Shown in pieces: positions 1 to 38,486 of a stretch of DNA of 64,000 bases. The DNA comes from Hymenobacter jeollabukensis (GTDB lineage Bacteria > Bacteroidota > Bacteroidia > Cytophagales > Hymenobacteraceae): the NCBI RefSeq assembly GCF_005771675.1, contig NZ_VAJM01000002.1, positions 124,001 through 188,000 on the forward strand. Reading direction: 5' to 3'. The position numbers were made by a program, and so were the translations under genes. A model generated the notes under the pieces. The model did not search any database. It saw only the letters and a program-made list of their open reading frames with translations, and had not been told where the DNA came from. Position 1 is the first letter of the stretch. Every line of letters starts with the position of its first letter.

Positions 1-774
1 TTCGCCGGCCAGATCAACGGCACCACCGGCTACGAGGAAGCCGCCTGCCAGGGCCTGATGGCCGGCATCAACGCCCACCAGCGGGTGCGCGACCTGGAGC
101 CGTTCATCCTTCGCCGCTCGGAGGCCTACATTGGCGTGCTCATCGACGACCTGGTGAACAAGGGCACCGACGAGCCCTACCGCATGTTCACCAGCCGGGC
201 CGAGCACCGCATTCTGCTGCGCCAGGACAACGCCGACCTGCGCCTCACCCCGCTGGCCCACAAGCTCGGGCTGGCCTCGGATGAGCGCATGGCCCGCGTG
301 GAGCAGAAGCGCCAGCAAACCGCCGACGTGCTCGACTACCTCAGCAAAAAACCGGTGGAACCGGGCGAAATCAACGGCCTGCTGGAAGAACTCGGCTCGG
401 CCCCCATCCACGAGAAAACCCGCGTGGTGAACCTGCTGCGCCGCCCCCAGCTCGATTTGCCCGACCTGCAGCGCGCCCTGCCGGAGTTGCACGAGTACCT
501 GAGCCAATACGGCGCCGAGGTATTGGAACAGGCCAGCATCCACGTCAAGTACGAAACCTACATCGAGAAGGAACACCAGCAAGCCGAGCGCATGGGCCAG
601 CTGGAAGACCTGCGCATCGTGGGCAAGCTCGACTACCAAGCCATGCCGGCCCTCTCGCACGAAGCCCGCGAAAAGCTGCTGAAGGTGCAGCCCGAAACCA
701 TCGGGCAGGCCTCGCGCATCAGCGGCATCTCGCCCGCCGATATTTCGGTGCTGATGGTGTACCTGGGCCGTTAA
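1..774 (+). CDS. mnmG: tRNA uridine-5-carboxymethylaminomethyl modification enzyme MnmG (GidA), C-terminal part
   Basis: The gene runs in from the left edge, so only the last 257 residues of a protein usually near 620 residues are present. The frame is open from base 1. The segment TSRAEHRILLRQDNADLRLT (about residues 62-81 of the fragment) is the conserved MnmG C-terminal block, and the end carries the helical domain that contacts MnmE and tRNA. With MnmE, the enzyme installs the cmnm5 group on the wobble uridine of certain tRNAs, using FAD, a folate and glycine. The FAD-binding N-terminus lies outside the window. mnmG often lies near the bacterial replication origin, which matters for the DnaA-box region about 6 kb downstream. 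Confidence 0.96.
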   Translation, partial: FAGQINGTTGYEEAACQGLMAGINAHQRVRDLEPFILRRSEAYIGVLIDDLVNKGTDEPYRMFTSRAEHRILLRQDNADLRLTPLAHKLGLASDERMARVEQKRQQTADVLDYLSKKPVEPGEINGLLEELGSAPIHEKTRVVNLLRRPQLDLPDLQRALPELHEYLSQYGAEVLEQASIHVKYETYIEKEHQQAERMGQLEDLRIVGKLDYQAMPALSHEAREKLLKVQPETIGQASRISGISPADISVLMVYLGR

Positions 775-8402: not shown

Positions 8403-8407
8403 GGTCT

Positions 8408-8455
8408 GGTTATCCACAAAAACACGGCTTTTTGATGTGGATAAGTGGATAAGTT
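8408..8455. other. second DnaA-box cluster (candidate origin, right half)
   Basis: Directly after the stop at 8402 lie two perfect TTATCCACA boxes, at 8410-8418 (plus) and 8436-8444 (minus), and a third box with one mismatch at 8444-8452 (minus). They are followed by AT-rich sequence up to about 8475. With the cluster at 6610-7075 this gives a two-part arrangement around two genes, as in known bipartite origins where DnaA boxes flank a gene. The boxes are seen directly; the origin function is inferred. Confidence 0.55.
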
Positions 8456-8544
8456 ATTGATAGTAAAGATTACGTAATGCAAACGTAACCGTAGAAGTAC
8501 AACTCGCGTATACTTCCGGCTTCGCTGCTAAAACGGTCTGAAAC

Positions 8545-29858: not shown

Positions 29859-30021
29859 AACACATTTCGGCGGCCCCGTCCGCGCTGTCGTCAGTCTTGA
29901 GCGCAGCGGAGACTGACCGACGCCGAACGGCCGCAAGCCGCCCACCTGCGCGACCCTCGCGCCGTATGCCCGTCGGCTACCCGCGGCACCCGCCGGTGCC
30001 GCCCGCCCTCCGTACCTTGCC

Positions 30022-31026
30022 GTGGCATCATTCGCCGCTCCCAATCCTGTGGACCTTTCCCGCTTTCTGAGCCCCATCACCGAGGCCCTGGCCGCCCGCC
30101 ACTACGGCGACCAGCCGCTCGAACTCTACGAACCCATCCGCTACAGCATGAGCATGGGCGGCAAGCGCATCCGCCCCCTGCTCACCCTGCTCGGCGCCTA
30201 CCTCTATTCCGACCACTGGGAGCAGCTGGCGCTGAACCCCGCCCTGGCCGTCGAGGTCTTCCACAACTTCACCCTGCTCCACGACGACATCATGGACCAG
30301 GCCCCGCTGCGCCGCGGCCAGCCCACGGTGCACGTCAAGTGGAACCCCAACGTAGCCATCCTCTCCGGCGACGTGATGCTGGTGCGCGCCTACGAGCTGC
30401 TCTTCGACATCGAGCCCGCCCTGCTGCGCGAAGCCCTGCAGCGCTTCAGCCAGACGGCCGCCGAAGTCTGCGAAGGCCAGCAGCTCGACATGAACTTCGA
30501 GACGCGCCCCCAGGTCAGCATTGCCCAGTACCTCGACATGATCCGCCTGAAAACGGCCGTGCTCCTGGGCTTCGCGCTGGAGCTGGGCGCCCGCCTCGGC
30601 GGAGCCAGCGCCGAGGATGCCGACCACCTGCGCCGCTTCGGCGTCGACATCGGCCTGGCCTTCCAGCTGCGCGACGATTTGCTCGACGTCTACGGCGACG
30701 CGGCCACCTTCGGCAAGCGCGTCGGCGGCGACATCGTGTCGGATAAAAAGACCTACCTGCTCCTCACCGCCCTGGAACGCGCCAACGCGGCCCAGAGAGC
30801 CACGCTGGGCCATTGGCTGGGTCTGAACTCATCCGAAACCGCCGCGGCCAAGGTGCGGGCCGTTACGGCCATCTACGACCAGCTCCAGATCCGTCCCCGC
30901 ACCGAAGCCCTCATCAACGACTATTTCCAGGACGCCCTGGCCCACCTCGACCAGGTGCAGGCCCCCGCCGAGCGCAAAGCCCTGCTGCGCGGCCTGGCCC
31001 TGCAGCTGATGGAGCGCGAGAGCTAG
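30022..31026 (+). CDS. polyprenyl synthetase (trans-isoprenyl diphosphate synthase)
   Basis: The protein of up to 334 residues has both aspartate-rich motifs of the family: HDDIMD (first, about residue 92) and LRDDLLD (second, about 217). Also present are GGKRIRP near the start and the KTAVL motif at about 175. It joins isopentenyl diphosphate units to an allylic diphosphate to make farnesyl-, geranylgeranyl- or longer chains; chain length cannot be told safely. No ATG exists: GTG 30022 or GTG 30049. A TACCTTGC -7-like box ends at 30020, right against the first GTG, so the second start (27 bases later) fits the usual spacing better. Confidence 0.92.
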   Translation: MASFAAPNPVDLSRFLSPITEALAARHYGDQPLELYEPIRYSMSMGGKRIRPLLTLLGAYLYSDHWEQLALNPALAVEVFHNFTLLHDDIMDQAPLRRGQPTVHVKWNPNVAILSGDVMLVRAYELLFDIEPALLREALQRFSQTAAEVCEGQQLDMNFETRPQVSIAQYLDMIRLKTAVLLGFALELGARLGGASAEDADHLRRFGVDIGLAFQLRDDLLDVYGDAATFGKRVGGDIVSDKKTYLLLTALERANAAQRATLGHWLGLNSSETAAAKVRAVTAIYDQLQIRPRTEALINDYFQDALAHLDQVQAPAERKALLRGLALQLMERES

Positions 31027-31060
31027 CGCCCCGTTCCATCCACCTTTCCTTCTGCCCACA

Positions 31061-31708
31061 ATGCCCTTTCCTATCGACCCCGTCATCATCCTCATTGCCC
31101 TGACGGTCGGCCTCTCTTTCTACGGCTGGAACAACCCCAGCGTGATGGAGCGCTGGATCTTCAGCCCCTACCGCGTGCGCCGCAACCACGAGTGGTACCG
31201 CTTCCTCAGCAGCGGCTTCCTCCACGCCGATTTCATGCACCTGTTCTTCAACATGTTTGCCTTCTACTCTTTCGGGCAGCTCGTGCAGAACCAGCTCATG
31301 GTCGAATCCGGCACCCTTACCGGTATCCTGCTCTTCCTGCTGCTCTACCTCGGCGGCGTCGTCATCTCCGATATTCCCACCTACCTGCGCCACCGCCAGG
31401 ATGCCCGCTACGGCAGCCTCGGGGCCTCCGGGGGCGTGGCCGCCGTGGTCTTCGCCGCCATCCTGTTCTACCCCGTCGCGCCCGAAGGCGGCGGTATCAT
31501 GATCTTCCCCATTCCCTTCCGCATCCAGCCCTTCCTCTTCGGTTTCCTCTACCTGGGCTATTCCTACTACCAGGGCCGCCGCTCCGGCGACAATATCAAC
31601 CACGACGCCCACTTCTACGGCGCCCTCTACGGCGTGCTGCTCACGATGCTGCTGTACCCCACCGTTATCCTCGATTTCTGGCAGCAAATCAGTAATAAGT
31701 ATTTGTAA
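31061..31708 (+). CDS. rhomboid family intramembrane serine protease
   Basis: The 215-residue multi-pass membrane protein has the rhomboid catalytic pair. The serine is in YGSLGASGGVAAV (GxSG, about residue 125) and the histidine is in NHDAHFYGALYG near the end. The conserved HADFMHLFFNMFAFYSFG block lies at about 49-66. Rhomboids cut TM segments of membrane proteins; the bacterial substrates are mostly unknown. It has six TM segments and the plain bacterial length. It follows the prenyl synthase by 34 bases and may share its transcript. Confidence 0.92.
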   Translation: MPFPIDPVIILIALTVGLSFYGWNNPSVMERWIFSPYRVRRNHEWYRFLSSGFLHADFMHLFFNMFAFYSFGQLVQNQLMVESGTLTGILLFLLLYLGGVVISDIPTYLRHRQDARYGSLGASGGVAAVVFAAILFYPVAPEGGGIMIFPIPFRIQPFLFGFLYLGYSYYQGRRSGDNINHDAHFYGALYGVLLTMLLYPTVILDFWQQISNKYL

Positions 31709-31813
31709 ATCAGGTGTTTGGATGCTAAAAACAGGCGAATGTATATCCATTGGGCGATGCTTGCGTAAGAAGACGCACAACACCTTCTCCTTACTCCAAC
31801 CCAAGCACCACCA

Positions 31814-32095
31814 ATGAACCGCGTAACTTCCCTCCGTGTGCCTTTCCGGCCCCTCGCCGCGCTAATGGCCTTCTTCGCCTCGCTCTCGCTCACCAGCTGC
31901 AGCCGCCGCGACGATTACGGCTCCTACACTATCTGGGGCGCCCTCATCCTGATCCTGGACGTGGTAGCCATGATCGACGCGCTGCGCCAGCCCTGGTCGC
32001 TCGGCAAGAAGATTCTCTGGATTGCCATCATCTACTTCCTGCCCATTCTGGGGCTGATCCTTTATTACCTGATTTCCGGCCGCGGCAAGTCCTAA
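31814..32095 (+). CDS. small membrane protein with PLDc_N (phospholipase D nuclease N-terminal) domain
   Basis: The 93-residue protein has an N-terminal signal/TM stretch (about 12-28, ending LTSC, which could be a lipobox) and two further TM segments (about 40-55 and 66-85). The typical PLDNc pattern is visible: WGALILILDVVAMIDALR, then LGKKILWIAIIYFLPILGLI and a final YYLISGR. The domain is otherwise found as the membrane anchor of cardiolipin synthases, but stand-alone copies like this have no known function. ATG start. It is closed by the terminator at 32117. Confidence 0.82.
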   Translation: MNRVTSLRVPFRPLAALMAFFASLSLTSCSRRDDYGSYTIWGALILILDVVAMIDALRQPWSLGKKILWIAIIYFLPILGLILYYLISGRGKS

Positions 32096-32116
32096 ACCGA
32101 CTCCGTTTCGCCAAAC

Positions 32117-32158
32117 GAAAAGAGGCCCGCTGCACAATGCAGCGGGCCTCTTTGTTTT
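32117..32158. terminator. bidirectional terminator between convergent genes
   Basis: AAAAGAGGCCCGCTGCA and TGCAGCGGGCCTCTTTGTTTT form a long perfect stem with A- and T-rich sides, serving the genes ending at 32095 (plus) and 32192 (minus). Confidence 0.88.
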
Positions 32159-32191
32159 CTACGGAATGAACGGGCGAATGGCCCGGCCGGC

Positions 32192-32821
32192 TTACTTCTT
32201 ACCGGCCAGCAGCCGCTGCTTTTCCAAGCGTGCCACGTGGCCCAGCGTCTGCCCCAGGTTGGTAATTTCCGTAATCTGCCAGTAGTCGCCCCGGTCACGC
32301 ATCTTCACTTCCAGCACCATCGTCGTGTCGTACTTCGGCTGCGTAAACTCCAGCCCGACCAGCGCCTGCTCGCCCTGCTCGTTCACGTACTTCACGCCCT
32401 TGAAGCTGCTCTCCGGGCTGATAACCTTGCTGGCCAGCCCGGCCATCGATACCTTCACCATGCGTTGTGGTTGGCTGGCAGCCGCCGCCTCCAAGGAACC
32501 AGTTTCTACGAAGTGCTGCATTTCCTTACGGGCGGCCTTGGCCAGCTGCGGCTTGGCCAGGCCCAGCACGCCCTTCGCCAACAGGCCACTGCCCGGCAGC
32601 ACAAAGCCCAGCGCCTTGCCCTGATCAGCCACCTGATCCACTAGGCTGCCCGTCACGCTCTCCACGTCCACGTACTTCTCGAAGCTGCTCACGTCGTGGT
32701 CGTGCAGGGCTTTCACCGCCTGGCCCAGGGCGAATTTGGGACCGGTCGTCACCTCGCGGTAATACAGGTAGCCTCCGATCAGCAGCACCGCCAGCACCAG
32801 AAGCAATAGTAAACGTTTCAT
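32192..32821 (-). CDS. membrane-anchored DUF2939-like protein
   Basis: The 209-residue protein has a single N-terminal TM (LLLLLVLAVLLIGGYLYYRE, residues about 4-23). A soluble domain typical of DUF2939 follows: GPKFALGQAVKALHDHDVSSFEKYVDVESV, then LAKGVLGLAKPQLAKAARKE, and a C-terminal YWQITEITNLGQTLG. Proteins of this kind sit in the inner membrane with the domain outside the cytoplasm; the function is unknown. I chose the ATG at 32821, which places the TM at the very start; upstream codons in the same frame lack similarity. Divergent from the GDPD gene. Confidence 0.78.
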   Translation of the reverse strand: MKRLLLLLVLAVLLIGGYLYYREVTTGPKFALGQAVKALHDHDVSSFEKYVDVESVTGSLVDQVADQGKALGFVLPGSGLLAKGVLGLAKPQLAKAARKEMQHFVETGSLEAAAASQPQRMVKVSMAGLASKVISPESSFKGVKYVNEQGEQALVGLEFTQPKYDTTMVLEVKMRDRGDYWQITEITNLGQTLGHVARLEKQRLLAGKK

Positions 32822-32942
32822 GTAGGGGTCAGAAAAAGATGAGTTCAACGCAAAGCTTCGCCAAAAATACCGCTTTGCGCTGCTCCTGCTAGTTCGCCCA
32901 CGGGTTTGCCTGCCTGCCCGCCGATTTGCGTATGCATATCCT

Positions 32943-33800
32943 ATGCTACCAGCTCCCGAATCCTCCCTGCGGCCACTCATCTACGGTCACCGCGGCTGCC
33001 GCGGCCTGCGCCCCGAAAACACCCTGCCCGCCTTCCTGCACGCCCTCGATTGGGGCGTCGACGGCCTCGAGCTTGACGTCATTATCTCGGCCGACAACGA
33101 AGTCGTCGTGTCGCACGAGCCCTGGCTGAATGCTGCCGTCTGCACCGGCCCCGACGGTGCCGTACTAACTCCCGAAGCCGGCCGGGCCTTCAACCTATTC
33201 CGGCAGCCCTACGCCACCATCCGCCGCTGCGACTGTGGCCGCATACGGCACCCCAATTTCCCCGAGCAGCAGTCCGAACCAGCCTATAAGCCTACCCTTA
33301 CGGAGGTGCTACACGCCGTGGCGGCTCGTTGTGCCACGCTGGGCCGACCCATTCCGGCCTTTTCCATTGAGCTGAAAAGTACCCCCGGCGCCGACGGCCT
33401 TGACCAGCCCCCGCCTTCGCAATTCGTGGCCCTGGTGGAGCAGGTCTTAGCCAATGCGCAACGCCAGCTTACGTTCCCGCTGCGCCTCCTGCTGATGTCC
33501 TTCGACCACCGCGTGGTACAAGCTGTTCGCGCCACATCAGGCTACCCGGTTTGCCTGCTGATCGAAGACGAGCTGCCGGTGGCTGAGCATATCCAGCGGC
33601 TCGGGTTTGTGCCAGATGCACTCGGTCCCGATTATCACCTGCTCGATGAGACGCTGCTCCGCTTCTGCAAAAGCGCCCGGCTGCCCATCATAGCCTGGAC
33701 GGTAAATGATCCAGCGGATATCAAGCGTGTTGCGCAGCTGGGCGTACACGGTATCACTACAGATTATCCAGATCGAGCAGTGACTGTACTCGGCCCTTAA
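32943..33800 (+). CDS. glycerophosphodiester phosphodiesterase
   Basis: The 285-residue TIM-barrel enzyme splits glycerophosphodiesters to glycerol-3-phosphate and an alcohol. The catalytic HRGCRGLRPENTLPAF (His 16 and Arg 17 with the Glu/Asn pair) is at the N-terminus. The metal-binding LELDVIISADNEVVVSHEP follows, and the later conserved parts are FSIELKS, IIAWTVNDP and GVHGITTDYPD. No signal peptide, so it should be cytoplasmic and serve phospholipid turnover. ATG 32943 is eight bases before the codon for the first conserved residues and fits the family start. It ends at the terminator at 33836. Confidence 0.92.
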   Translation: MLPAPESSLRPLIYGHRGCRGLRPENTLPAFLHALDWGVDGLELDVIISADNEVVVSHEPWLNAAVCTGPDGAVLTPEAGRAFNLFRQPYATIRRCDCGRIRHPNFPEQQSEPAYKPTLTEVLHAVAARCATLGRPIPAFSIELKSTPGADGLDQPPPSQFVALVEQVLANAQRQLTFPLRLLLMSFDHRVVQAVRATSGYPVCLLIEDELPVAEHIQRLGFVPDALGPDYHLLDETLLRFCKSARLPIIAWTVNDPADIKRVAQLGVHGITTDYPDRAVTVLGP

Positions 33801-33835
33801 CAGGCCGCCCGAATCCGATGCCGCGACTACCAACC

Positions 33836-33863
33836 AAACGCCTGCTAACCCAGGCGTTTTTTT
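33836..33863 (+). terminator. Rho-independent terminator of the GDPD gene
   Basis: AAACGCCTG and CAGGCGTTT arms with a six-base loop are followed by a run of T. Confidence 0.85.
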
Positions 33864-33931
33864 ACATCGATAGCTGCAGGAGCTGTTATACAAGCTCAGA
33901 TAAGGGCGCGCAGTGGACCGAGTAAGCAGAT

Positions 33932-34413
33932 GTTACACGGTTTGTGTTACAAGATGCTGTAACGTGTGAGTGATAGTGTATCTGTAAAGTGTATTATGTA
34001 ACAATGTAACAGTGTTCGATTAGTATCATTTTTGTATCGTGTAACAGTAATCATATGTGTTATAATTTTGCATCATCTAACAAATTTGTCATCTTTACAC
34101 CCTAGCTCCGTTACATCCCCCTTTGCATGACCCACCAAGGCGAAATCCTGCAGGAAGCCATTAAAAACAGTGGTATTTCCATTAGTCGTATCGTGCAGGA
34201 GCTGGGTATTACACGTCCTACTATTTACCGTAAATTCAAAGATGCTACGCTTGACTACAATTTTGTTAAGCGGGTTGGTGAGGTGATACAACATGATTTT
34301 ACGAATGATTTTGATACAACTGTACAATCTCAATTACCCTTTACAATACAAAGTGTAACACCGCCTACTGGATCTGTAACGCGTAACACTGTTGCCCGTG
34401 AAAACACGTTACA
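33932..34413. promoter_or_regulatory. array of ten GTTACA/TGTAAC motifs around the HTH gene
   Basis: Exact hits start at 33932, 33946, 33958, 33997, 34005, 34040, 34110, 34354, 34375 and 34408. Seven lie upstream of the ATG at 34127 and three lie inside the coding region. By base composition I estimate well under one chance hit in this length. The pair 33946-33963 is a perfect inverted repeat with a six-base spacer (AGATGC). The 326-base intergenic region that holds most of the motifs is strongly AT-rich and contains a TAATTTTG -7-like box at 34063-34070. The simplest reading is a set of binding sites for the HTH protein encoded there, or an iteron-like array. Confidence 0.65.
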
Positions 34414-34522
34414 AGCTGCAGATCAAGACCCTATAAAGGCTTTGATGGCCCTTCAGGCGAAATACATTGCTCTATTGGAAGCCTATAATGAGCTTCTGTT
34501 AAAAGTGTATGGCCCCAAGTGA
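34127..34522 (+). CDS. small HTH DNA-binding protein of a Bacteroidota-type family
   Basis: The 131-residue protein has an N-terminal helix-turn-helix (residues about 1-60: GEILQEAIKNSGISISRIVQ then LGITRPTIYRKFKDATLDYN) of the Fis/XRE-like kind. A Thr/Ser-rich linker follows, then a C-terminal helix (about 103-128, IKALMALQAKYIALLEAYNE) that looks like a dimerising coiled coil. I have seen the opening MTHxGEIL in small HTH proteins of Bacteroidota, but no role is established. Codon use is much more AT-rich than in the neighbouring genes. The gene sits within the GTTACA array and ends seven bases before a perfect parS site, beside dciA and recF, so a role in chromosome maintenance is an attractive guess. 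Confidence 0.85.
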   Translation: MTHQGEILQEAIKNSGISISRIVQELGITRPTIYRKFKDATLDYNFVKRVGEVIQHDFTNDFDTTVQSQLPFTIQSVTPPTGSVTRNTVARENTLQAADQDPIKALMALQAKYIALLEAYNELLLKVYGPK

Positions 34523-34529
34523 ACAGTAA

Positions 34530-34545
34530 TGTTTCACGTGGAACA
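34530..34545. promoter_or_regulatory. perfect parS (ParB-binding) site
   Basis: TGTTTCACGTGGAACA is the reverse complement of TGTTCCACGTGAAACA, an exact match to the bacterial consensus TGTTNCACGTGAAACA. It is intergenic, seven bases after the HTH stop. parS sites bind ParB and cluster around the replication origin in most bacteria. parA/parB are not in the window. Confidence 0.8.
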
Positions 34546-34559
34546 TTCTGTAGCCTGCA

Positions 34560-34800
34560 GTGTATCCTAGGATTCGATAATCATGCTAGCCCCTGTATCG
34601 GCTTGCCAGTAATAGCTATATGCACCAAGCTGCGCAACGTGAGGTAGGCCCTGGTTCAGGCAAGGGGCAATGCCAGTTTGCGGGGAAACCTGGGGCGCTA
34701 ATTTGAGCGCCAAGTCTCATCTAGAAATGAGAAGTTAGAGGAAGTAAAGGGCTCATAGAGCCGAGCCAATAGAGGCGGAAGCATGAGGCCAACAAACGGG
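34560..34800. other. possible structured RNA between parS and the dciA terminator
   Basis: No gene lies between 34523 and 34886. Several short hairpins occur in series: CCTG/CAGG at 34650-34660, GGCGCT/AGCGCC at 34694-34711, CTCAT/ATGAG at 34716-34731 and GGCTC/GAGCC at 34750-34762. They are separated by purine-rich single-strand-like pieces, the look of a structured RNA. I could not match it to tmRNA, RNase P, 6S, SRP or a riboswitch. Strand and limits are uncertain. Confidence 0.3.
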
Positions 34801-34810
34801 AAAAGCAGGC

Positions 34811-34838
34811 AAAAAAAAGCCTCTCGATGGGAGAGGCT
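34811..34838 (-). terminator. Rho-independent terminator of the recF-dciA unit
   Basis: On the minus strand, AAGCCTCTC and GAGAGGCTT form the stem, followed by eight T. It lies about 50 bases after the dciA stop codon. Confidence 0.85.
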
Positions 34839-34886
34839 TGGGCAGATTAACGTAAGGGTTGGCTACATCACAGGGGCAGGCTGGCC

Positions 34887-35237
34887 TTAAAGAAAAACCA
34901 CCTCTTTTACCAAGTCTTCACCGACCTCGGTATTGATGATTTCCGCGACGCGAGTCTTGGCCATAAACAGCTCATGCTTCAGCGGGGCAGAAGTCAAACG
35001 CACAAACAGCTTCCCGTTGCGGAAGTAAACCTCCTGGGTTTTCAGCGCCACGGCCCGGCCCATGATTCGCTCCCAGGAAGACACCACGTAGACCTCGTTC
35101 ATCTTGCCCTGCAAGCGGTAAGCCTTCAGCAAAGCCTGAATACCGTCCTTCAAGGGCACGACGTCCGCTTGGCGGGAAAACTCATTTTTCGGGCGGAATT
35201 TCACGACAAAAAGGCTATAATATCGCGAAGAGGGCAA
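34887..35237 (-). CDS. dciA: DUF721 (DciA-like) protein, probable replicative helicase partner
   Basis: The protein of up to 116 residues carries the DUF721 core: LKDGIQALLKAYRLQGKMNE, VVSSWERIMGRAVALKTQEV and FRNGKLFVRLTSAPLKHELF. DUF721 includes DciA, the ancestral loader/operator of the DnaB replicative helicase in bacteria without DnaC. Assignment here rests on family membership, and the DciA role in Bacteroidota is less tested. It follows recF on the same strand after a 36-base gap, a pairing common in this phylum. The start is either ATG 35237 or GTG 35204; the first dozen residues do not look like the family. Confidence 0.82.
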   Translation of the reverse strand: MPSSRYYSLFVVKFRPKNEFSRQADVVPLKDGIQALLKAYRLQGKMNEVYVVSSWERIMGRAVALKTQEVYFRNGKLFVRLTSAPLKHELFMAKTRVAEIINTEVGEDLVKEVVFL

Positions 35238-35273
35238 GCCTCTGCGTGCTTCAAAGGTACGAAGCTTGTACGC

Positions 35274-36410
35274 CTACAGGGGGTGAACGGTCCCGTTTTC
35301 TACCCGAAAGCGCGATACTTGCTCGGAGAGCCCCGCCAGGGCTTGGTCGGTACGCTCAAGGTGGGTATCGGTAAGGAACACCTGACCGAAGGTGTGATTG
35401 GCCACCAATTGTAGGAGTCGCTTGATCCGCCGCTCATCCAGGCGGTCGAAAATGTCATCGAGCAGGAGCAAGGGCTTGTGCTGCTTCTTGCTCGCCATGA
35501 TTTCAAACTGGGCCAGTTTCAGCGCAATTGCGTACGATTTTTGCTGGCCCTGCGAGCCAAATCCCTTCACCGCCGAGCCATCCATCAGGAACACGTAGTC
35601 GTCCTTGTGGGGGCCTATGGAGGTGCGCTGCAGGGTAATATCCTTGCGCTCATTCTGCCGCAGCAGCTGCGCGAAATCCTCGCCTGGGAGCTGACTCTTA
35701 TAATCCAGGGTTACGGTTTCGCGACTGTCGGCCAGATCGATGTAGTGGCGTTGGAAGACGGGTACGAACTCCTGCAGGAAACGCTGCCGGATAACGACCA
35801 GCTGACTGCCGGCATCTACTAGCTGCTCGTCCAATACCTGCAGGTAGTCACGGTCGAAACTGTGGCGCTCGGCGAACTGCTTCAGCAGGGCATTGCGCTG
35901 CTTGAGCGCGAAGCTATACTGGATGAGCAGCTCCAAATAGGAGTGGTCGAGCTGGGAGATAAGACTGTCGAAATACTTGCGGCGTTCTTCGCTGCCCTGT
36001 CGTATAAGGTCGGTATCGTAGGGGGAAATGAGCACGACCGGGTACCGGCCGATGTGGTCGGATAGACGTTCGTAGGGCTGCTTGTTGTGGGTGACCAGCT
36101 TTTTCTGGCCGGCTCGCAGGCTGCACTGAATGGTATCGGGCGAGGCGGAAGAGGGGAGGGTGAAGCGGCCTTTCACCAAGAAAAAGTCAGCGCCTTGCTT
36201 CATGCACTGGGCATCGGAAGCGGCAAAGGCGCTCTTGGTCATCGACAGGTAATGGATGGCATCGAGCAGGTTGGTCTTGCCGCTGCCGTTCTCGCCGATA
36301 AAGCAGTTGATGTGAGGCGAAAGCGTGAGGGTGGCTTCGTCGTAATTCTTGAAAAAGAGCAGGTGTAGCGAGTCCAGCGTCATGCTAAGCGGGGGTTTCG
36401 GAGTTGCCAT
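35274..36410 (-). CDS. recF: DNA replication/repair protein RecF
   Basis: The 378-residue SMC-like ATPase loads RecA at gaps with RecO and RecR. Walker A is GENGSGKT (about residue 38), after the typical LHLLFFKNYDEATL start. The family signature GFGSQGQQKSYAIALKLAQF and Walker B LLLLDDIFDRLDERR lie at about 280-325, followed by VFLTDTHLER. The length is normal. The start is ATG 36410 or, nine codons later, ATG 36383 (MTLDSLHLLF), which fits the family better. It is divergent from pdhA across only 48 bases. recF is classically near the origin beside dnaA/dnaN; here it pairs with dciA. Confidence 0.94.
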   Translation of the reverse strand: MATPKPPLSMTLDSLHLLFFKNYDEATLTLSPHINCFIGENGSGKTNLLDAIHYLSMTKSAFAASDAQCMKQGADFFLVKGRFTLPSSASPDTIQCSLRAGQKKLVTHNKQPYERLSDHIGRYPVVLISPYDTDLIRQGSEERRKYFDSLISQLDHSYLELLIQYSFALKQRNALLKQFAERHSFDRDYLQVLDEQLVDAGSQLVVIRQRFLQEFVPVFQRHYIDLADSRETVTLDYKSQLPGEDFAQLLRQNERKDITLQRTSIGPHKDDYVFLMDGSAVKGFGSQGQQKSYAIALKLAQFEIMASKKQHKPLLLLDDIFDRLDERRIKRLLQLVANHTFGQVFLTDTHLERTDQALAGLSEQVSRFRVENGTVHPL

Positions 36411-36427
36411 GCTTTTACGTACTTTCG
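36396..36427 (+). promoter_or_regulatory. candidate promoter of pdhA
   Basis: TTTC at 36396-36399 and TACTTTCG at 36420-36427 are 20 bases apart, close to the Bacteroidota TTTG-N19-TAnnTTTG pattern with one change in each box. It lies 32 bases before the pdhA ATG and overlaps the recF start. Confidence 0.4.
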
Positions 36428-36458
36428 CATTCCAAAACCCGAACTAGAAGAGCAACTA

Positions 36459-37652
36459 ATGGCGGATACGAAGGTAAAGGCTGCCTCGAAGGCATCCAAT
36501 TCGGCCAGCAAGGCGAAAACGAAGGCCCCGCAAAAGGCCGAGGAGCAGCAAGTAGCTACCCCGCCCCAGGACGATGCCGCCCAGCCCGTGGCTGAGCAGG
36601 CGAAACAAGCCAAGACGACTTCCGCGAACGGCAAGGCCGCCAAAAAGCAGGTTGCTGCTGCCGAGCCCGCCTTCGACAAGGAGACGTACATGAAGTGGTT
36701 CGAGAGCATGATGCTCATGCGCCGCTTCGAGGAAAAAGCCGGCCAGCTCTATGGCCAGCAAAAGATCAAAGGCTTCTGCCACCTCTACATCGGCCAGGAG
36801 GCCTGCGTAGCCGGTGCCGTATCGGCACTGGAAAAGGGTGACAAGTTCATTACCGCCTACCGCGACCACGCCCACCCGCTGGCGCTGGGCACTTCGCCCA
36901 ACGCGCTGATGGCCGAACTGTTTGCCAAGGAAACCGGCTGCTCGAAAGGCAAGGGCGGTTCCATGCACATGTTCGATAAGGAAGTTGGTTTCGTTGGTGG
37001 CCACGGCATCGTGGGCGGGCAGGTGCCGCTGGGCGCCGGTCTGGCCTTCGCCGAGAAATACAACAAGACGGGCAAGCTCTGCATCTGCTACATGGGCGAC
37101 GGCGCCGTGCGCCAGGGCGCCCTGCACGAAGCCTTCAACATGGCCATGCTGTGGAAGCTGCCGGTCATCTTCGTGGTGGAGAACAACGGCTACGCCATGG
37201 GCACCTCGGTGCAGCGTACTTCCAACGTGACGGACCTCTACACCATTGGCGAGGCCTACGACATGCCCTCGGAGCCCGTGGACGCTATGCAGGTAGAAGA
37301 CGTGCACAACGCCGTGGCCCGCGCCGCTGAACGTGCCCGCGCCGGCGAAGGCCCGTCCTTCCTCGAGTTCAAGACCTACCGCTACAAAGGCCACTCCATG
37401 TCGGACCCGGCCAAGTACCGCACCAAGGAAGAGGTGGAAGGCTACCGCCAGCGCGACTCCATCGAGAACGTGCGCGCCGTTATTCTGGAGCGCCAGTACG
37501 CCACCGAAGACGAGCTGCAGGCCATTGATGACCGCATCAAGGCCGTGGTAGCTGAGTCGGTGGAGTTTGCCGAGAAGTCGCCCTTCCCGCCCGCCGAGGA
37601 GCTGTACCAGGACGTGTACGTGCAGACGGACTATCCCTTCATCCGCGAGTAA
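36459..37652 (+). CDS. pdhA: pyruvate dehydrogenase (acetyl-transferring) E1 component, alpha subunit
   Basis: The 397-residue thiamine-diphosphate enzyme subunit decarboxylates pyruvate with the beta subunit (PdhB) and feeds acetyl groups to E2. The TPP motif GDGAVRQGALHEAFNMAMLW continues to VVENNGYAMGT. Substrate-site motifs are HLYIGQEACVAG and YRDHAHPL, and the phosphorylation-loop region is FLEFKTYRYKGHSMSDPAKY. The first 73 or so residues are an Ala/Lys/Gln-rich extension without conserved fold, resembling the flexible linkers normally found in E2. pdhB is not adjacent: the next gene is a TPR protein. ATG start. Confidence 0.94.
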   Translation: MADTKVKAASKASNSASKAKTKAPQKAEEQQVATPPQDDAAQPVAEQAKQAKTTSANGKAAKKQVAAAEPAFDKETYMKWFESMMLMRRFEEKAGQLYGQQKIKGFCHLYIGQEACVAGAVSALEKGDKFITAYRDHAHPLALGTSPNALMAELFAKETGCSKGKGGSMHMFDKEVGFVGGHGIVGGQVPLGAGLAFAEKYNKTGKLCICYMGDGAVRQGALHEAFNMAMLWKLPVIFVVENNGYAMGTSVQRTSNVTDLYTIGEAYDMPSEPVDAMQVEDVHNAVARAAERARAGEGPSFLEFKTYRYKGHSMSDPAKYRTKEEVEGYRQRDSIENVRAVILERQYATEDELQAIDDRIKAVVAESVEFAEKSPFPPAEELYQDVYVQTDYPFIRE

Positions 37653-37671
37653 CCACCGATTAAGCTAAGCC

Positions 37672-37704
37672 GGGCGGCCGGTCCAATCCGACCGCCCTCC
37701 TTTT
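37672..37704 (+). terminator. probable terminator after pdhA
   Basis: GGGCGG and CCGCCC arms with inner pairing GGTC/GACC are followed by a pyrimidine tract (CTCCTTTTCC), 20 bases after the stop. Confidence 0.55.
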
Positions 37705-37712
37705 CCCTTCCC

Positions 37713-38486
37713 ATGTCGAAGATTCCCTACACGCGCAATACGCCGCAGGCGCGCCAGAACGAGACGCCCCAGCAGCCCCAGGAGGGTCAGCCGGACCCCA
37801 ATGCGCCATATCAGCACCCACTGCTGGAAGACCCCAATGCCTTGGCCAACCGGCTGGAGGATTCGGAGCTATTCGTGCGCCGCAACAAGAACATCGTGTT
37901 CGGGTTGCTGGCCGCACTAGTGCTGGCTGTGGTAGGGGGCTTCGGCTACTACACCTGGCGACAGTCGCAGGACGACAAAGCCCAGGCGACGATGTTTCAG
38001 GCCGTGAACTACTGGGAAGCCGACTCCCTGCGCAAAGCCCTGAAGGGTGACGGGCAGGCACCCGGCCTCGAAGCCGTAGCCAGCGAGTATGGTGGCACGA
38101 AGGCGGGCAACCTGGCCAACTTCTACGCCGGTGCCGCTTCGCTGAAGGACGGCAAGTACCAGCAGGCTATCGACTATCTGGAGGACTTTAGCTCTGATGA
38201 CCTGCTGCTGCAGGCCCGCGCCTACGCCCTCATCGGCGACGCCAACATGGAGCTGAAGAAGTACAAGGAAGCAGCCGACTACTACCAGAAGGCCGCCGAC
38301 TACAAAGCCAACGAGTACTTCACGCCCGGCTACCTGATGAAGCTGGCCGTGGCCAAGGAAATGCAGAAGGACTACGCCGCCGCCGGTACCGCCTACGACA
38401 AAATCGTGAACGACTACCCGCTGTCGCCGGAAGCCAACGAGGCCAAGATCTACCAGGCCCGCGACAAGGCTCTGACTGGCAAGTAA
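37713..38486 (+). CDS. tetratricopeptide repeat membrane-anchored protein (YfgM-like layout)
   Basis: The 257-residue protein has a polar Pro/Gln-rich N-terminus, one TM segment (residues 61-80, IVFGLLAALVLAVVGGFGYY) and a periplasmic domain with TPR-like helices (KAGNLANFYAGAASLKDGKY, YALIGDANMELKKYKEAADY, AAGTAYDKIVNDYPLSPEAN). The layout resembles YfgM/YbgF-type periplasmic TPR proteins, which assist envelope protein folding in E. coli. In Bacteroidota such a gene regularly precedes ribH, as it does here. ATG start. Confidence 0.87.
   Translation: MSKIPYTRNTPQARQNETPQQPQEGQPDPNAPYQHPLLEDPNALANRLEDSELFVRRNKNIVFGLLAALVLAVVGGFGYYTWRQSQDDKAQATMFQAVNYWEADSLRKALKGDGQAPGLEAVASEYGGTKAGNLANFYAGAASLKDGKYQQAIDYLEDFSSDDLLLQARAYALIGDANMELKKYKEAADYYQKAADYKANEYFTPGYLMKLAVAKEMQKDYAAAGTAYDKIVNDYPLSPEANEAKIYQARDKALTGK

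What the first reader, a model, noticed from the sequence alone, without database searches (positions are those of the whole stretch)
33932..34522. Orphan HTH gene inside an array of ten GTTACA motifs
Ten exact copies occur in 482 bases, seven in the leader and three in the coding region, including a perfect inverted pair (33946-33963). The gene is AT-rich, encodes a DNA-binding protein with a probable dimerising helix, and is followed by parS and flanked by dciA and recF. Autoregulation through many sites, or an iteron-like chromosome-handling locus, would both be new.
Basis: partly seen in the sequence, partly recalled or inferred. Interest (0 to 1): 0.78.

Follow-up and report, generated by a model that had tools for sequence, protein, structure and literature searches.

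The report
Binding-site array beside chromosome's only centromere
In Hymenobacter and close relatives the chromosome's single recognisable centromere site sits directly behind a small gene for a likely DNA-binding protein, and that gene carries in its leader and inside its own coding sequence an array of one short DNA word, which suggests a dedicated partner of the chromosome-partition machinery.

Summary
Observation confirmed: 10 of the window's 11 GTTACA words lie in 33932-34413; local shuffles reach at most 6. The core is TGTWACA; GATACA is enriched too. Coding-region sites are kept as DNA: 202 against 74 +/- 7 in codon shuffles, mostly written as Val-Thr in a linker predicted disordered. 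In two relatives' 380-kb samples no other 700-base stretch approaches the locus. This parS is the only perfect one in 9 of 9 genomes tested. It lies 22-26 kb from a DnaA-box cluster, the likely oriC, in 3 of 3 genomes. In four related genera parS lies beside mnmG, without array (19 of 19 examined). Best reading: an XRE-like protein binds its own gene and builds a patch on the oriC side of the sole parS, bounding or modulating ParB spreading. Binding and function are inferred. Plain autoregulation is the main rival.

The parts
33932..34115 (.). Upstream array: seven GTTACA words (33932+, 33946+, 33958-, 33997-, 34005-, 34040-, 34110+), including the inverted pair 33946-33963
   Evidence: at least one site in the 300 bases upstream in 76 of 76 distinct loci
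34067..34097 (+). Promoter-like stretch, TTTG (34067) to CATCTTTA (34090); CATnTTTR lies within 60 bases of the ATG in 62 of 76 loci, mostly 34-37 bases upstream. Reading it as a Bacteroidota promoter rests on recall.
   Evidence: sequence
34127..34522 (+). 131-aa XRE-like HTH protein: DNA-binding domain about 1-60, linker 65-99 predicted disordered, helix 102-128
   Evidence: next hit in the own genome only E 0.17
34354..34413 (.). Intragenic array: three GTTACA words in the linker-coding stretch; across loci most Val-Thr pairs are such words
34530..34545 (.). parS TGTTTCACGTGGAACA, the only perfect copy in this genome
34887..35237 (-). dciA (DciA family)
   Evidence: PF05258; found in 41 of 41 loci fetched with 3-kb flanks, 40 on this strand and one (L061) on the other
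35274..36410 (-). recF
   Evidence: RecF/RecN/SMC model; 41 of 41 of the same loci
32943..33800 (+). Glycerophosphodiester phosphodiesterase gene upstream
   Evidence: PF03009; 37 of 41 of the same loci
8405..8460 (.). DnaA-box cluster (TTATCCACA at 8410+, 8436-, and a near copy), candidate oriC, about 25.7 kb upstream of the HTH gene
   Evidence: the same mnmG-pit gap holds the top cluster in two other genomes. The box sequence is recalled; no shuffle test of the clusters was made.
58..774 (+). C-terminal part of mnmG (gidA), neighbour of parS in four related genera
   Evidence: TIGR00136 (E 1.7e-72, below the full-length cut-off because the window cuts the gene)

Best explanation
The locus is a centromere-associated nucleoprotein module. 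The HTH protein (XRE-like, held together by its C-terminal helix) binds TGTWACA-type words, whose clusters lie almost only in its own gene: one array upstream of its promoter, one inside its linker-coding sequence. It coats about 0.5 kb on the oriC side of the chromosome's only perfect parS, while the other side stays free. ParB clamps loaded at parS would be stopped or slowed on that side, or the patch would fold the centromere by bridging the two arrays. As the promoter lies between the arrays, the same binding would set the protein's own level and shield its promoter from ParB. Shown by sequence: conservation, DNA-level selection of the sites, one-sidedness, local clustering, sole perfect parS, origin-proximal place. 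Inferred: that this protein binds the sites, that it oligomerises, and that ParB spreading is what is affected.
For: Array and parS occur together in 76 of 76 distinct loci: 71 perfect 16-mers, 5 with the 14-base core. In 61 loci, coding-region sites number 202 against 74 +/- 7 in 200 codon shuffles, upstream sites 227 against 33 +/- 6 in 60 dinucleotide shuffles. Of 221 Val-Thr pairs 173 are GTWACA, 61 expected; none uses GTG or GTC. 189 of 202 coding sites fall in the linker-coding stretch, predicted disordered. In 300 bases beyond parS there are 16 words in 76 loci, never two in one locus. In 380-kb samples of two relatives the densest other 700-base stretch holds 2 and 4 words, the locus 6 and 9. 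Direct pairs: 4 of 5 in the own genome and 12 of 15 in the 8 of 11 relatives that have any lie at this locus. Recognition helix TRPT(I/M)YRKF goes with arrays (76 of 76); genus g6 homologues with SRKTLYNKF have 0 or 1 word (20 of 20). Engineered protein roadblocks limit ParB spreading (PMC8299390, PMC3688505; passages read).
Against: No binding, ChIP or ParB data for this organism were found. A small HTH protein with sites round its promoter fits plain autoregulation. The number of direct pairs per genome is not itself above control: 5 against 6 for the reversed pattern in the own genome, though 15 against 3 in eleven relatives; three of those eleven (G003, G055, G065) have no direct pair even at the locus. 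Solitary or degenerate sites elsewhere could form a regulon that word counts miss. Two of 76 loci have no GTTACA in the gene. Homologues in g6 show no array, and in two genomes no perfect parS lies within about 100 kb. A paralogue in one relative (L011, helix SRPTLYRRF) has one word upstream, none in the gene. Upstream spacing shows no single period. The loci are related, so their counts are not independent.
Confidence: 0.5

Rival explanations
1. A self-regulating transcription factor. Upstream and intragenic operators let the protein loop or block its own gene; the parS behind the stop codon is a neutral or historical neighbour, and the real targets are solitary sites elsewhere.
For: HTH domain resembles SinR and HipB, known regulators (recalled). 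Sites flank the promoter-like stretch.
Against: parS within 40 bases of the stop codon in 76 of 76 loci. Sites overlap the recognised promoter-like core in 2 of 223 cases. GTTACA and TGTTACA fall below second-order expectation in two 380-kb samples, though so does the control CTTACA; clusters elsewhere are weak.
Confidence: 0.3
2. An iteron-type replication control site: the protein-bound array titrates, handcuffs or times initiation, with ParB displacing the protein when the centromere is assembled, as proposed for ParB2 and RctB on Vibrio cholerae chromosome II.
For: Array plus parS in the origin region. Neighbours dciA and recF. The Vibrio precedent (PMC3688505, passages read). DnaA-box words near the g6 homologue.
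Against: The DnaA-box cluster is 22-26 kb away, so the array is not inside the likely oriC.
Confidence: 0.12
3. The sites are bound by another protein, and the HTH gene is only their host.
For: No binding data. A 7-base palindrome is short for a dimer with two separate recognition helices (general knowledge).
Against: Among the loci examined, arrays occur with one form of this gene's recognition helix (76 of 76) and not with the g6 form (0 of 20).
Confidence: 0.07
4. A by-product of an AT-rich stretch.
For: The leader and gene have GC 0.40 and 0.42 against 0.59 in the flanks.
Against: Composition-keeping shuffles never reach ten copies. The word exceeds codon and dinucleotide shuffles in 61 loci while the control words CTTACA and ACATTG do not.
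Confidence: 0.01

Closest known systems
ParR/parC-type plasmid centromeres (recalled; only a search listing seen)
   Same: A small DNA-binding protein encoded at an array of short repeats round its promoter, serving both as segregation site and as autoregulator (recalled)
   Different: No ParM-like gene among the neighbours read here, the array lies partly inside the coding sequence, and a ParB-type parS is attached
RctB 39-mer and parS2-B at rctA, Vibrio cholerae chromosome II (PMC3688505, passages read)
   Same: Sites of one protein next to a chromosomal parS, with ParB spreading into them; an inserted RepA iteron array was used there as a roadblock
   Different: There the protein is the replication initiator at its origin; here it is a 131-aa HTH protein and the DnaA-box cluster is 22-26 kb away
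SinR/HipB-type XRE regulators
   Same: Best Foldseek matches of the model; SinR also has a C-terminal oligomerising part (recalled)
   Different: No match with E below 0.001, no significant sequence match among solved structures (best E 0.022, to another family)
ParB-parS chromosome partition
   Same: Canonical 16-base parS; a ParB_N-domain gene in 9 of 9 genomes, 1.1-1.7 Mb from parS in the eight single-contig ones
   Different: One perfect parS per genome, fixed behind an HTH gene with an array on one side only. A review notes that most species have more than one parS near oriC and that one can suffice (PMC7022226, passages read)

Membership tests
Chromosomal parS of the ParB type | 16-base palindromic consensus (recalled) | tested here: met
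   Perfect at 34530-34545; 71 of 76 loci perfect, 5 with the 14-base core
Chromosomal parS of the ParB type | Near the replication origin | tested here: met
   DnaA-box cluster 22-26 kb away in 3 of 3 genomes; 16 of 18 rRNA operons in eight genomes are transcribed away from the locus. GC skew was too weak to add to this
Chromosomal parS of the ParB type | Bound by ParB in vivo | not testable with these tools
   A ParB_N gene is present; no binding data
XRE-like HTH proteins | Helical HTH fold of that type | tested here: inconclusive
   Model pLDDT 83-93 over residues 1-60; best matches are XRE proteins but none with E below 0.001; best Pfam model is HTH_7 of resolvases, just over its cut-off
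Iteron or centromere-binding systems (ParR/parC, RctB-like) | Array of a short word beside or in the binder's own gene | tested here: met
Iteron or centromere-binding systems (ParR/parC, RctB-like) | The encoded protein binds the repeats | not testable with these tools
   Only co-occurrence with the recognition helix
DnaA-type replication origin | DnaA-box cluster at the locus | tested here: not met
   No TTWTNCACA from 13983 to 64000 of the window; in 61 loci 8 boxes in 48 kb of leader plus gene and 9 in 239 kb of flanks: denser in the AT-rich locus but far from a cluster in each

The most novel reading that the evidence does not exclude
A natural, dedicated centromere-flanking roadblock: a bacterial chromosome's only parS is welded to a gene whose product binds its own coding DNA, with the binding sites written into a disordered protein linker as Val-Thr repeats, so that the gene body itself is one wall of the partition complex. 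The module would have arisen when parS moved from the mnmG side of oriC to this gene in the Hymenobacter lineage.
Probability: 0.3. Interest if true: 0.88.

Novelty: new variant of a known kind. Interest (0 to 1): 0.72.

Why it matters
ParB spreading has been limited with engineered roadblocks (PMC8299390, PMC3688505; passages read). The searches made here listed no natural, dedicated element that does so at a chromosomal parS (listings and starts of abstracts, open-licence papers only). This locus offers a candidate with one parS, one array and one small protein. It also shows a coding sequence held by two codes at once, DNA words setting the residues of a linker, and a centromere site whose place differs between related genera. 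Each part can be tested directly.

Tried and rejected
GC skew as an origin test: weak and confounded with gene direction; rRNA operon strand and DnaA-box clusters were used instead. The locus as a DnaA-box oriC: rejected. A remnant of parS beside mnmG in G055 and G129: best match 11 of 16, the usual best in 20 shuffled 5-kb controls. An anchor AAATTTGTC for the promoter: in 3 of 61 loci (12 of 20 in g6), replaced by CATnTTTR. A period in the upstream array: none clear; the 12-base step in the coding array is partly forced by the reading frame. RNA element: no Rfam match reaches its gathering score at 30000-38000; the two listed are sub-threshold and not at the gene. No tRNA in the window. Relatives in viral contigs: none confirmed; PHROGs matches weak. 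Distant relatives in other Cytophagales families (94 of 390 order genomes match at E 1e-8, many of them this family): not followed.

Against or beside my reading: controls as given in the Against line; ACATTG and CTTACA behave unevenly in the genome samples; two rRNA operons (one each in G049 and G055) point the wrong way (sides judged from rounded or contig lengths); 16 of 204 family genomes have no perfect parS, ten of them in g4. Dropped before counts: L011 (paralogue), L079 (cut off), L013-L016 (copies of the window locus) and loci with identical genes, leaving 61; L002, L003 and L012 are not orthologues. Of 22 further loci 15 were distinct, giving 76. The g6 set is 20 of the matches listed, the best-scoring of g6. 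Loci were drawn best match first, not at random.

Full report
Observation. The window holds 11 GTTACA words, ten of them in 33932-34413: seven upstream of and three inside the ORF 34127-34522. Dinucleotide shuffles of 33932-34522 give a mean of 0.85 and at most 6 in 5000 trials; the commonest of all 6-mers reaches at most 7 in 1000. The HTH, dciA, recF and the parS at 34530-34545 are as described.

Organism and orthologues. The window is part of a 6.18-Mb genome in 27 contigs. The nearest named relative is Hymenobacter edaphi (89% protein identity), followed by other Hymenobacter and Solirubrum puertoriconensis. The protein has a match in 8 of 8 genomes of its genus, the window's own included, and in 161 of 204 of its family.

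The cluster recurs. From the loci fetched, 61 distinct orthologous genes, later 76, were compared. All 76 have at least one site in 300 bases upstream, 74 of 76 have sites in the gene; together 3 to 13, median 7. The most enriched 7-mer is TGTTACA: 277 against 7.8 expected from base composition, in 61 of 61 loci. So the core is TGTWACA. GATACA is enriched in similar ratio and TTTACA less so; the true site is therefore wider than the word counted here.

The sites are kept as DNA. Shuffling synonymous codons within each of 61 genes, which keeps protein and codon usage, gives 74 +/- 7 sites (highest 92 of 200 shuffles); 202 are seen. The 250 bases upstream hold 227 against 33 +/- 6. The control words CTTACA and ACATTG show no excess. 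189 of the 202 coding sites fall in the linker-coding stretch, where the protein is predicted disordered (residues 65-99). There they are largely written as Val-Thr: of 221 such pairs in 76 proteins 173 are GTWACA where 61 are expected from the other Val and Thr codons, and none uses GTG or GTC. Neighbouring sites in the gene are often 12 or 24 bases apart, and 73 of 76 proteins are 124, 128, 132 or 136 residues long.

parS and one-sidedness. All 76 loci have parS within 40 bases of the stop codon, 71 perfect and 5 with the 14-base core; in the first 61, the 57 perfect ones start after 6 to 8 bases. In 9 of 9 genomes tested it is the only perfect copy. Across the family 188 of 204 genomes have one perfect copy and none has more. 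The array lies on the gene side only: 300 bases beyond parS hold 16 words in 76 loci, never two in one locus.

Place on the chromosome. In eight single-contig genomes 16 of 18 rRNA operons are transcribed away from the locus; one each in G049 and G055 is not. dnaA lies about 1.0-1.5 Mb and parB 1.1-1.7 Mb away in these. The strongest DnaA-box cluster of the window and of 180 kb around the locus in G055 and in G129 lies in the gap between mnmG and pit, 22 to 26 kb upstream of the gene; no shuffle test was made of these clusters. So array and parS are near, but not in, the likely oriC.

parS lies elsewhere in related genera. In seven genomes of g2 and g3 and twelve of g5 and g6, 19 of 19 examined, parS is beside mnmG. 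Within 1 kb of it there are 0 to 2 GTTACA. The homologue in g6 has another recognition helix and 0 or 1 GTTACA in leader plus gene (20 of 20); no perfect parS lies within about 100 kb of it in two genomes; the DnaA-box word TGTGGATAA occurs in its leader or gene in 14 of 20 loci. So gene, array and parS came together in the lineage of the window, or came apart in the others. Without an outgroup the direction is not settled. That the mnmG place is older is my inference, helped by recall that mnmG (gidA) and par loci are neighbours in many bacteria.

Local clustering. In 380-kb samples of G055 and G129 the densest 700 bases outside the locus hold 2 and 4 GTTACA, the locus 6 and 9; with GATACA counted too, 3 and 4 against 9 and 14. 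TGTTACA is below second-order expectation in the samples (2 against 12.5, 15 against 20.5), and so is the control CTTACA. Direct GTTACA pairs: 4 of 5 in the own genome lie here, but the reversed control pattern has 6 matches. Direct TGTAACA pairs in eleven relatives: 15 in 8 of them, 12 at this locus; the control has 3.

Protein. The model (mean pLDDT 75.7, pTM 0.43) has an HTH domain, a disordered linker and one long C-terminal helix. Best fold matches are HipB and SinR, none with E below 0.001. Sequence search of solved structures (best E 0.022) and NCBIfam (none) add nothing.

Mechanism. A protein whose only strong site cluster seen is its own gene, placed against the sole perfect parS, most simply acts at that place. 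Tightly bound proteins stop ParB sliding in engineered systems (PMC8299390; PMC3688505, where an inserted RepA iteron array was used; passages read). I therefore propose a patch that bounds or modulates ParB on the oriC side and at the same time sets its own expression. Binding, oligomerisation and the effect on ParB are inferred. Plain autoregulation is the strongest rival; replication control through the array is a third.

Novelty. Searches combining Hymenobacter with oriC, parS, ParB or segregation, and parS with roadblocks, phyla or Bacteroidetes, listed no account of such a locus (listings and starts of abstracts only). One listed paper, PMC5891637 on Cytophaga, holds the words Hymenobacter, oriC and a word starting with pars; it was not read. 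In one search no listed paper held Hymenobacter together with parS and ParB, and one search found no paper for its three terms. Most subscription journals are not held.

Noticed in passing
L121-L140 (genus g6), leader and start of the HTH homologue: DnaA-box words recur: TGTGGATAA in 14 of 20 loci and TTGTCCACA in 14 of 20, as if DnaA controlled the homologue in that genus.
   Followed up: partly
window 8405-8460; G055 about 2454300-2454760; G129 about 1764500-1764900: Candidate oriC of Hymenobacter in the mnmG-pit gap, by DnaA-box clusters.
   Followed up: partly
Family-wide: 188 of 204 genomes have exactly one perfect parS, none more. In the 19 mnmG-side cases examined it is the full palindrome TGTTTCACGTGAAACA, while most listed Hymenobacter-type genomes have TGTTCCACGTGAAACA.
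   Followed up: partly
family f21 (many genomes near 1 Mb): Several copies, often two to four, of distant relatives of the HTH protein in one small genome.
   Followed up: no
window 34811-34839: Inverted repeat with an A run between parS and dciA, like a terminator of dciA on the minus strand; read by eye, not scanned.
   Followed up: no
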